A stretch of DNA of 64,000 nt from Stomoxys calcitrans (Eukaryota > Arthropoda > Insecta > Diptera > Muscidae), in NCBI RefSeq assembly GCF_963082655.1, contig NC_081552.1:123852458-123916457 (forward strand), in the 5' to 3' direction. Below, in pieces: positions 42,812-48,162 of the stretch. A program made the position numbers and the translations under genes. How positions within the stretch are numbered: the first letter of the stretch is position 1; each line of letters starts with the position of its first letter. The notes under the pieces are model-generated. The model was not told where the DNA came from, ran no database searches, and saw only the letters and a program-made list of their open reading frames with translations.

Positions 42812-44242
42812 CACAGTGGGCCAAATGGCAAAAAAATTGGAAATAAGTCTACAACTTTTTATCTGTTGATTTTAGCCATACAAAATGTTCTAGACATTTG
42901 TAGAGGAGGACATAGGCTTTCAGAAAAGTGCTGTTGTTGGTCCATATCTTTAATACAGGGTGAGCTACAGGGTGTCAAAGTTGACCACTTTTGACTTCTC
43001 CAAGCTTCTGGGGGCCATAACTTTTGATCTACTCAACCGATTTACATGATTTAGGACTCTAGAGAAAGAGCTTGACAAGATCTAAAAAACTTATGCATAA
43101 AGTACCATGCCATCGTGTACTGTTAAGGAGTTATGAATTGTTTAATTTTAAAATATGAAAATTTGGCCTTGGTTTTTTTCAGTGTTTTTTAAATAACTCC
43201 GTCAATTTTAAAGCTATAAACTTCATACTTCACACAAATTATGCCAGCATATGTGTGCATAAAATACAAAAGGAATCACGTGAATATCTTTGGCGGTTTA
43301 AAAATGGCATCGTTTTCAATATGAAAAATATTTTTTTTGTCAAAAAATTGCAAAATTTTTCAAAAAAGATACTCCCATTTCCTTTAAGTTTTCGCAAACT
43401 TTGGCCATCAAAGCATTATCATTTCTTTCCATTTTCACAAAGTCGAGGTATTAAGAAAAGTTTTAAGTGCTAATTTGGCTAATTTCGATATCAAACAACA
43501 CCGTTATCTTAAGACCAAAATGGCCAATTTTTTTACTAAACTTCAAAAGTTTCTCACTGGAAAAAAAGTTCCACGGGGATTTTTTCGCTTTTTTTGAACT
43601 TAAATGAAAGCTTAAAATGTTCCCAACATTTTAAGGTATGTCTCGCCATATCCTAGCCATAAATGAGATCGTAGCGATCAAAATACTGAAAAAAGTCAAT
43701 TTTCAAGTAGTGCTATATTCATTGCTAAAAAACAAGTATTACGTCACATTTTATTGCAAAGATGTTAAATAAACTTTTATTTGGTAACACTTCTTCTACA
43801 AAACACAAAAAGAATCATGGAAATATCTCTATTCTATTCCATTTTATGGAACCGGCAATAAAAAAGTCAATTTTTCAAAAAAGTCGAATTTCCCAAATTT
43901 TGTTTTTGTTGTCCTAATTGCACATGACACACTATAGCCATATTTACGCAACATACCTTATCGTAAAGGAAATTTTCATACCTTTCCAACGATGTATAAA
44001 ACATTTCTCAACTCGGATTCTATCTACTCTAAAATTCATTTACACTTCATTAAACTCTATATAAAAATGTCTATTTGTGAAATGGAACCTTATATGGGGC
44101 CTACACTAAAACATTGATAGATTTGCCCAGGGTTTACAATACAAATGTGTTAGAATAAAAAAAGGTCTCCTGCCAAAGTTTAAAAAAATTGGAATAAAAA
44201 TATGTGTTTTAGAGCGAAAACACTTCGCATCGGCGTGCGTTT
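42812..44242 (+). repeat. Transib left terminal inverted repeat (1,431 bp)
   Basis: Identical to the reverse complement of 46732-48162 in a line-by-line reading. The first seven bases are CACAGTG. An A-rich run follows at 42831-42836, 12 bases after the heptamer, but it matches a recombination-signal nonamer in only about 5 of 9 positions. A direct repeat ACAGGGTG occurs at 42955-42962 and 42967-42974. The repeat is AT-rich with no convincing gene. A 72-codon open frame occurs in both repeats only because they are identical. Confidence 0.93.
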
Positions 44243-44290
44243 ATATGTATATTAGCTACTCCCAAAATAAAAAAGCATTTTAGTTTTGTA

Positions 44291-46333: not shown

Positions 46334-46731
46334 AACTTATAAATGTCCTTTACGCCTCTACAAAATATAATGAAGAAAATTTGGATTTTGTTCAAATATT
46401 TATGCAATATATTCACAATTAATGACCCATTTCAGGTATCAGACGCAATCGTAAAAAGGGGTCCAAAGTGCCTCTTTTTACTTACTCTTCTATAATTATT
46501 TACCTGGACTCGAATTTGGTTAAAAAAAATGACAATGAATTTTTTATGGGTAGGTTTTTTCACATTCATTGATACGGTGGATTTCCTGGGAATTCGACAT
46601 AGCGAAACAGGTAACATTTGTCTGCATCAAATCTTAACACAAATATATATATATATATGCAGGTATATTTCTAGGTTACTTTTTATTCAAAAATCATCAG
46701 CTTACATTAAAAATAGATGTAGGTACTATAC
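46334..46731 (-). promoter_or_regulatory. Transib transposase leader region
   Basis: A 398-bp unique stretch lies between the right inverted repeat and the transposase start. It holds an AT-alternating run at about 46641-46657 that could act as a TATA-like element. On the minus strand it also has a donor-like CAG|GTAAAT (intron starting at 46503) and an acceptor-like TTTTGTAG (AG at 46359-46358) after a pyrimidine-rich tract. If used, these would remove 146 nt from the 5' untranslated region. They cannot extend the protein, because the joined frame meets TAA just before the ATG. Promoter and intron are inference. Confidence 0.35.
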
Positions 46732-48162
46732 AAACGCACGCCGATGCGAAGTGTTTTCGCTCTAAAACACATATTTTTATTCCAATTTTTTTAAACTTTG
46801 GCAGGAGACCTTTTTTTATTCTAACACATTTGTATTGTAAACCCTGGGCAAATCTATCAATGTTTTAGTGTAGGCCCCATATAAGGTTCCATTTCACAAA
46901 TAGACATTTTTATATAGAGTTTAATGAAGTGTAAATGAATTTTAGAGTAGATAGAATCCGAGTTGAGAAATGTTTTATACATCGTTGGAAAGGTATGAAA
47001 ATTTCCTTTACGATAAGGTATGTTGCGTAAATATGGCTATAGTGTGTCATGTGCAATTAGGACAACAAAAACAAAATTTGGGAAATTCGACTTTTTTGAA
47101 AAATTGACTTTTTTATTGCCGGTTCCATAAAATGGAATAGAATAGAGATATTTCCATGATTCTTTTTGTGTTTTGTAGAAGAAGTGTTACCAAATAAAAG
47201 TTTATTTAACATCTTTGCAATAAAATGTGACGTAATACTTGTTTTTTAGCAATGAATATAGCACTACTTGAAAATTGACTTTTTTCAGTATTTTGATCGC
47301 TACGATCTCATTTATGGCTAGGATATGGCGAGACATACCTTAAAATGTTGGGAACATTTTAAGCTTTCATTTAAGTTCAAAAAAAGCGAAAAAATCCCCG
47401 TGGAACTTTTTTTCCAGTGAGAAACTTTTGAAGTTTAGTAAAAAAATTGGCCATTTTGGTCTTAAGATAACGGTGTTGTTTGATATCGAAATTAGCCAAA
47501 TTAGCACTTAAAACTTTTCTTAATACCTCGACTTTGTGAAAATGGAAAGAAATGATAATGCTTTGATGGCCAAAGTTTGCGAAAACTTAAAGGAAATGGG
47601 AGTATCTTTTTTGAAAAATTTTGCAATTTTTTGACAAAAAAAATATTTTTCATATTGAAAACGATGCCATTTTTAAACCGCCAAAGATATTCACGTGATT
47701 CCTTTTGTATTTTATGCACACATATGCTGGCATAATTTGTGTGAAGTATGAAGTTTATAGCTTTAAAATTGACGGAGTTATTTAAAAAACACTGAAAAAA
47801 ACCAAGGCCAAATTTTCATATTTTAAAATTAAACAATTCATAACTCCTTAACAGTACACGATGGCATGGTACTTTATGCATAAGTTTTTTAGATCTTGTC
47901 AAGCTCTTTCTCTAGAGTCCTAAATCATGTAAATCGGTTGAGTAGATCAAAAGTTATGGCCCCCAGAAGCTTGGAGAAGTCAAAAGTGGTCAACTTTGAC
48001 ACCCTGTAGCTCACCCTGTATTAAAGATATGGACCAACAACAGCACTTTTCTGAAAGCCTATGTCCTCCTCTACAAATGTCTAGAACATTTTGTATGGCT
48101 AAAATCAACAGATAAAAAGTTGTAGACTTATTTCCAATTTTTTTGCCATTTGGCCCACTGTG
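46732..48162 (-). repeat. Transib right terminal inverted repeat (1,431 bp)
   Basis: Mirror copy of the left repeat, ending in CACTGTG at 48156-48162, directly followed by CGACG. Identity to the left repeat stops abruptly at 46732, where a T-run is followed by different bases on the two sides. Confidence 0.93.

What the first reader, a model, noticed from the sequence alone, without database searches (positions are those of the whole stretch)
42812..48162. Transib transposon with identical 1,431-bp terminal inverted repeats
Known Transib elements have inverted repeats of tens of bases. Here each repeat is 1,431 bp and I found no mismatch on reading all lines of one against the other. The two repeats make up over half of the element. 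This looks like a foldback-type Transib, perhaps made by terminal duplication or gene conversion, and it must be young. It bears on how RAG-like elements evolve end structure and on whether transposase binding sites are spread through the long repeats.
Basis: partly seen in the sequence, partly recalled or inferred. Interest (0 to 1): 0.95.

Follow-up and report, generated by a model that had tools for sequence, protein, structure and literature searches.

The report
Transib transposon with very long ends
This is a young, very numerous jumping gene in what appears to be the stable fly, related to the enzyme that assembles our antibody genes; unusually, its two ends are 1.4-kb mirror copies of each other, and a few copies show mirror ends that have grown further.

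Summary
42812-48162 has two 1,431-bp inverted arms without a mismatch, CACAGTG tips, CGACG on both sides and an intact 680-aa ORF matching the HzTransib transposase (E 6.8e-84) with its DDE residues. It is not a local duplication: the genome (inferred: Stomoxys calcitrans) holds 1,536 exact tips and 1,523 exact inner arm ends, so roughly 760 elements. Fifteen aligned full-length copies differ by about one base each (sample biased towards young copies). One copy from each of two other Transib families in the same genome has TIRs of 12 and 14 bp. 'Terminal duplication' gains direct support: four copies have one half replaced by an inverted copy of the other, joined at 3-9 bp of microhomology, with arms of 1,449, 1,826, 2,055 and 2,338 bp. 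I read this as strand switching between identical arms during repair of the excision gap, much as proposed for Galileo; products are shown, pathway inferred. Binding sites spread through the arms and continuing conversion between arms found no support (weak tests). Verdict: real; new variant of a known superfamily. The main interest is catching inverted repeats in the act of lengthening in a very young RAG-related family.

The parts
42807..42811 (.). left target-site duplication CGACG
   Evidence: 19 of 21 both-ended insertions read have matching 5-bp duplications
42812..44242 (+). left arm, 1,431-bp terminal inverted repeat, beginning CACAGTG
   Evidence: identical to the reverse complement of the right arm; family-wide
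42812..42818 (+). left terminal heptamer CACAGTG
44243..46731 (.). unique interior with the transposase ORF, a TA microsatellite and 5' and 3' untranslated parts
   Evidence: the window copy has 2 bp more than 14 other full-length copies in the alignment here
44291..46333 (-). Transib transposase ORF, 680 aa, no stop; D271, D385, E599 and C401, C404, H573, H578 conserved
   Evidence: 65 of 65 scored copies 100% identical in protein, of 1,494 candidates
46732..48162 (-). right arm, 1,431-bp terminal inverted repeat
48156..48162 (-). right terminal heptamer CACAGTG (reads CACTGTG on +)
48163..48167 (.). right target-site duplication CGACG

Best explanation
A complete, apparently autonomous cut-and-paste Transib of a very young, high-copy family in what I infer to be the stable fly. 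The transposase is taken to cut at the outermost CACAGTG tips and insert at CG-rich 5-bp targets (inferred from homology and from the target duplications, not assayed). The 1.4-kb arms are a fixed trait of the family. They most likely arose when one end region of a roughly 4-kb ancestor with ordinary short TIRs was copied onto the other end (inferred). The same kind of event still happens: after excision the donor gap is repaired from another copy, a growing strand in one arm switches to the identical other arm, reads past its inner border, and the two strands join at microhomology. This leaves a copy with one half in mirror image and longer arms (products shown, pathway inferred).
For: Transib membership: HzTransib match E 6.8e-84, catalytic and zinc-type residues conserved in 99-100% of 100 aligned relatives, DDE positions as in PMC6941560, CACAGTG tips, 5-bp duplications matching in 19 of 21. 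Paralogous empty sites with a single CGTCG for L023 and L016. Family trait: counts. Growth: L013, L026, L027, L039 have one half mirrored, with different breakpoints and 3, 9, 7 and 8 bp of overlap at the joints; on C1 up to 128.2 Mb 3 of 92 elements with both inner junctions are left-left or right-right. L012 has an internal deletion with a repeated 53-bp stretch and short overlaps, also expected of gap repair. Short TIRs in two other families of the genome.
Against: The ancestor with one arm was not found, and the origin of the first 1.4 kb is not shown. The decayed sister family is inconclusive. Pfam's RAG1 model scores 24.1, just under its cut-off of 25. L012 and L028 have non-matching target duplications. 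The 20 fetched copies were chosen for an arm identical to the query. Other repair routes give similar products.
Confidence: 0.75

Rival explanations
1. The arms grow by ectopic recombination or conversion between different copies, or by a replication-based switch, not by repair of the excision gap.
For: Hundreds of nearly identical copies are available as partners. The Galileo authors propose repair through non-allelic recombination for 'TIR1-F1-F1-TIR2' copies (PMC3573991 passages).
Against: The joints carry 3-9 bp of overlap, which fits end annealing better than crossover in long homology. Flanking target duplications of all four mirrored copies match, so no exchange of flanks is seen.
Confidence: 0.25
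2. The long arms are kept because they work: they hold extra transposase sites, enhancers or the promoter.
For: In Galileo the transposase THAP domain binds inside the long TIRs (PMC3688188 passages). The arm ends 49 bp from the stop codon and about 400 bp upstream of the start codon, so the promoter may lie in or near an arm (inference). One tip-like motif lies at arm base 1361.
Against: No inner heptamer within one mismatch; the tip-like motif is equalled or beaten by 9 of 300 shuffles, and no clear internal periodicity was found. The family is too young to show selection on the arms.
Confidence: 0.15
3. Assembly artefact or a local duplication at this one locus.
For: None found; raw reads were not available.
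Against: The same arms lie between different flanks at the other loci fetched, and exact counts give roughly 760 elements.
Confidence: 0.02

Closest known systems
Transib superfamily (HzTransib; D. melanogaster transib1-4)
   Same: Homologous transposase with the same DDE residues, CAC tips, 5-bp target duplications.
   Different: Published TIRs that I could read are 40-45 bp; here 1,431 bp. Hztransib is 3,518 bp with TIRs called 'long', length not seen.
Two other Transib families of the same genome (copies L037, L038)
   Same: Transib transposase, CAC tips, 5-bp duplications CGGCG and CGGTG.
   Different: One copy of each was read: TIRs of 12 and 14 bp, lengths 3,053 and 3,237 bp.
Galileo (P superfamily, Drosophila)
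   Same: Kilobase-long TIRs; ORF pieces taken up into the TIRs in mirror image; a proposed repair scheme giving TIR1-F1-F1-TIR2 (passages).
   Different: Another transposase superfamily, internally repetitive TIRs, and no potentially active copies reported in the passages I saw; here 65 of 65 scored ORFs are identical and open.
RAG1 / ProtoRAG / RAGL transposons
   Same: Distant transposase homology (RAG1L chain 6b40 E 5.1e-05), CAC tips, 5-bp duplications (PMC7204232 passages).
   Different: No RAG2-like ORF inside the element (one search lists no second long ORF; it was not searched by profile), and both ends identical, while RAG uses 12/23 signals.

Membership tests
Transib | Transib-type transposase | tested here: met
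   6pqn E 6.8e-84 over 165-643 of 680 aa
Transib | DDE catalytic residues | tested here: met
   D271, D385, E599, conserved in 99-100% of 100 aligned relatives; they match HzTransib D126, D225, E436 at a constant offset of 17 counted by hand on the alignment
Transib | tips beginning CAC, heptamer-like | tested here: met
   CACAGTG at both ends
Transib | 5-bp, CG-rich target duplication | tested here: met
   matching in 19 of 21 both-ended insertions; 10 of the 19 are CGNCG; L012 and L028 do not match
Transib | short TIR (tens of bp) | tested here: not met
   1,431 bp. TIR length is not a defining trait of a superfamily (so stated for transposons in PMC3573991), so membership stands
Transib | transposition by this protein | not testable with these tools
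   needs an assay; near-identity of copies and empty sites are indirect
Foldback/Galileo-type element (works like) | TIRs of kilobase length | tested here: met
Foldback/Galileo-type element (works like) | internally repetitive TIRs with extra transposase sites | tested here: inconclusive
   no clear internal repeats and no inner heptamers; no array reported in the arms at score 150; protein binding not testable
Galileo (member of) | P-superfamily transposase | tested here: not met
   the ORF is a Transib transposase; no P-element family among Pfam matches up to E 1

The most novel reading that the evidence does not exclude
The long identical arms act as a built-in repair template: a damaged end can be rebuilt from the other one. 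That would keep tips intact through a burst to roughly 760 copies, and would push the arm border inward from time to time until the transposase gene is eaten, so that the family both thrives on and is finally disabled by its own arms. It would also show that a highly successful Transib needs no difference at all between its two ends, unlike RAG with its 12/23 rule.
Probability: 0.2. Interest if true: 0.7.

Novelty: new variant of a known kind. Interest (0 to 1): 0.5.

Why it matters
It shows how a RAG-related transposon can come to carry kilobase-long mirror ends, and offers roughly 760 nearly identical copies, four lengthened ones read here, in which the growth of inverted repeats can be followed before mutation blurs it. 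A family that has evidently spread with two identical ends bears on when and why RAG came to need two different signals. Hundreds of pairs of 1.4-kb identical inverted arms are also a likely source of hairpin RNA, small RNAs and chromosome rearrangements (inference).

Tried and rejected
Local duplication or short-repeat copies: rejected by exact counts of tips, inner arm ends and inner junctions. Spread binding sites: no support. Conversion between arms: no variant on both arms of a copy, low power. Internal repeats in the arm: no lag or chunk comparison stood out clearly from expectation.

Is the long arm ancestral to the clade? Four places match a decayed sister protein (P0042; 49% identical to our ORF) at 70-97% (L029-L032), and two were re-fetched more widely (L033, L034). 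L033 has inverted stretches (2256-2852 against 7226-8129, 79-87%) and a mirror-image piece of ORF, but I could not recognise its ends, and L034 shows only short inverted repeats apart from a repeat array. Left open.

Literature, PMC library only. No paper holds both 'Stomoxys calcitrans' and 'Transib', or 'Transib' and 'long terminal inverted repeats'. Eight hold 'Transib', 'terminal inverted repeats' and 'long TIR'; I looked at passages of one of them, PMC1852546. One review holds 'Transib', 'foldback' and 'inverted repeats', listing only. Passages of PMC12230796 and PMC12694884 gave no Transib TIR length. The 2005 Kapitonov-Jurka paper is not held and Repbase was not available, so a long-TIR Transib may already be on record there. 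DNA of other insect genomes could not be searched. A count of tips with up to 3 mismatches (for older copies) and a wider sample of target sites were asked repeatedly and not answered. No structure was predicted.

Full report
What is there. The element runs from 42812 to 48162. Its arms, 42812-44242 and 46732-48162, are identical in inverted orientation over all 1,431 bases (repeat finder). Both tips read CACAGTG, and CGACG stands on each side. One open frame, 44291-46333 on the minus strand, codes for 680 aa. It matches HzTransib (6pqn) at E 6.8e-84 and RAG1-type chains weakly; Pfam's RAG1 model scores 24.1, just under its cut-off of 25. D271, D385 and E599 are conserved in 99-100% of 100 aligned relatives, as are C401, C404, H573 and H578. 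The first three line up with HzTransib D126, D225 and E436 as given in PMC6941560 (passages; the constant offset of 17 from the chain numbering was counted by hand). That the cysteines and histidines answer to RAG1's zinc site is recalled, not tested.

Whose genome. G000 has 1.07 Gb in 297 contigs. I infer the stable fly.

A family, not a single oddity. Of 485 candidate arms 40 were scored, and all 40 are 100% identical over 1,431 bp. Of 1,494 transposase candidates 65 were scored, and all 65 are 100% identical in protein, all on C1. Exact matches in the whole genome: 36-base tip 771+765, 30-base inner arm end 758+765, left inner junction 373+375, right inner junction 375+375; each reversed control gave 0. 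So there are roughly 750-770 elements. Among the first 100 listed tips 48 pairs form, 25 of exactly 5,349 bp and 41 between 5,271 and 5,431 bp; five are shorter, two longer, and four tips are unpaired. The window copy is 5,351 bp because of a 2-bp gain that the 14 other full-length copies aligned do not have.

Twenty loci with flanks were fetched. They were chosen for an arm identical to the query, so they lean towards young copies. Nineteen have both ends; L010 lacks one. In 14 of the 19 the arms stop matching at base 1,431; one has a 1-bp arm indel (L014), one a 36-bp arm deletion (L016) and three are extended (L013, L026, L027). With the window and L039, 19 of 21 insertions have matching 5-bp duplications, 10 of these CGNCG; L012 and L028 do not match. 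Of 20 joined flanks 8 had a paralogue spanning the joint. Two are clear empty sites with a single CGTCG: L023 against window 38928-39418 (92%) and L016 against its own flank (99.5%). L021 matched the element's own tip and is spurious; the other five are more diverged and I do not lean on them.

Age. Among 15 full-length copies, the window included, there are 17 variant columns, all but one private to one copy. Thirteen private substitutions over 15 x 5,349 sites make 1.6e-4 per site; at a recalled fly rate of about 3e-9 per site per generation this is some 50,000 generations, and the sample is biased low. No variant sits on both arms of a copy, so the identity of the arms needs no continuing conversion: youth is enough.

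How the arms grow. In the coordinates of one 5,349-bp copy (L025), L013 is 5349-3012 inverted plus 1839-5349; L026 is 1-2340 plus 2064-1 inverted; L027 is 1-2403 plus 1826-1 inverted; L039 is 5349-3901 inverted plus 2609-5349. Their arms are 2,338, 2,055, 1,826 and 1,449 bp, and the joints overlap by AAT, GGACATAAC, AAGCTTT and TACATCTA. All breakpoints differ, so I count four events. L039's arms pass the usual border by only 18 bp. On C1 up to 128.2 Mb, of 92 elements with both inner junctions 89 are left-right, 2 left-left (L026, L027) and 1 right-right (L039); 15 further junctions are single. L012 has an internal deletion with a repeated 53-bp stretch and 3-4-bp overlaps. This fits repair of the excision gap in which a strand in one arm switches to the identical other arm, reads past the border, and the two strands anneal at microhomology. 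The products are shown; the pathway is inferred. For Galileo, repair of one TIR with the other as template was proposed, giving TIR1-F1-F1-TIR2 (PMC3573991 passages), and mirror-image uptake of ORF sequence is described (PMC4168063 passages). How the first 1.4 kb was copied is not shown.

Role of the arms. Inside the arm there is no CACAGTG nor any one-mismatch form of it. The best tip-like motif, at arm base 1361, scores 15.5; 9 of 300 shuffles reach this. So I find no sign of spread sites, while Galileo has them (PMC3688188 passages). The two ends are identical for 1,431 bp, so the family has evidently spread without end asymmetry; some Transibs are reported with 12/23-like asymmetric ends (PMC8355894 passages).

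Against what is known. D. melanogaster transib1-4 have TIRs of 43, 42, 45 and 40 bp (PMC10299278 table), TransibSU 13 bp (PMC4411706 passages), Helicoverpa Transib MITEs 13-27 bp (PMC7764229 table). Two more Transib families in this genome, each with many matches of equal or nearly equal score, have TIRs of 14 bp (L038) and 12 bp (L037) in the one copy each that I read. Hztransib was called a 3,518-bp element with 'long TIRs' without a length in the text (PMC1852546 passages), and Repbase was not available, so I do not claim that no long-TIR Transib has been described. Searches of the held papers for a Stomoxys Transib and for Transib with 'long terminal inverted repeats' found none.

Verdict. 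Real, family-wide, young; a Transib by protein, tips and duplications; unusual by its arms. New variant of a known kind.

Noticed in passing
window 3073-3942, 14944-15519, 21067-21552, 38571-39279, 49177-49924, 61349-62657: Dispersed arrays of tandem repeats of about 153 bp (192 bp for part of 14944-15519). Related units lie beside several Transib insertions, and copy L023 sits in the CGTCG of such a unit; they may be favoured targets.
   Followed up: partly
window 4815-5257, 7484-7924: Arrays of tandem repeats of about 130 bp.
   Followed up: no
L037 2357-5409 and L038 1511-4747: Two further Transib families in the same genome, each with many copies of equal or nearly equal score; in the copies read they have 5-bp duplications and short TIRs.
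   Followed up: partly
L033 2256-8129: A decayed sister-family copy with long, diverged inverted stretches and a mirror-image ORF piece: perhaps the same arm growth in an older family. Its ends were not recognised.
   Followed up: partly
P0024: A named relative of the transposase is a hypothetical protein of the moth Eumeta japonica (568 bits), scoring above the Stomoxys sister protein P0042 (371 bits, a shorter fragment). With the youth of the burst this hints at horizontal transfer; not tested.
   Followed up: no
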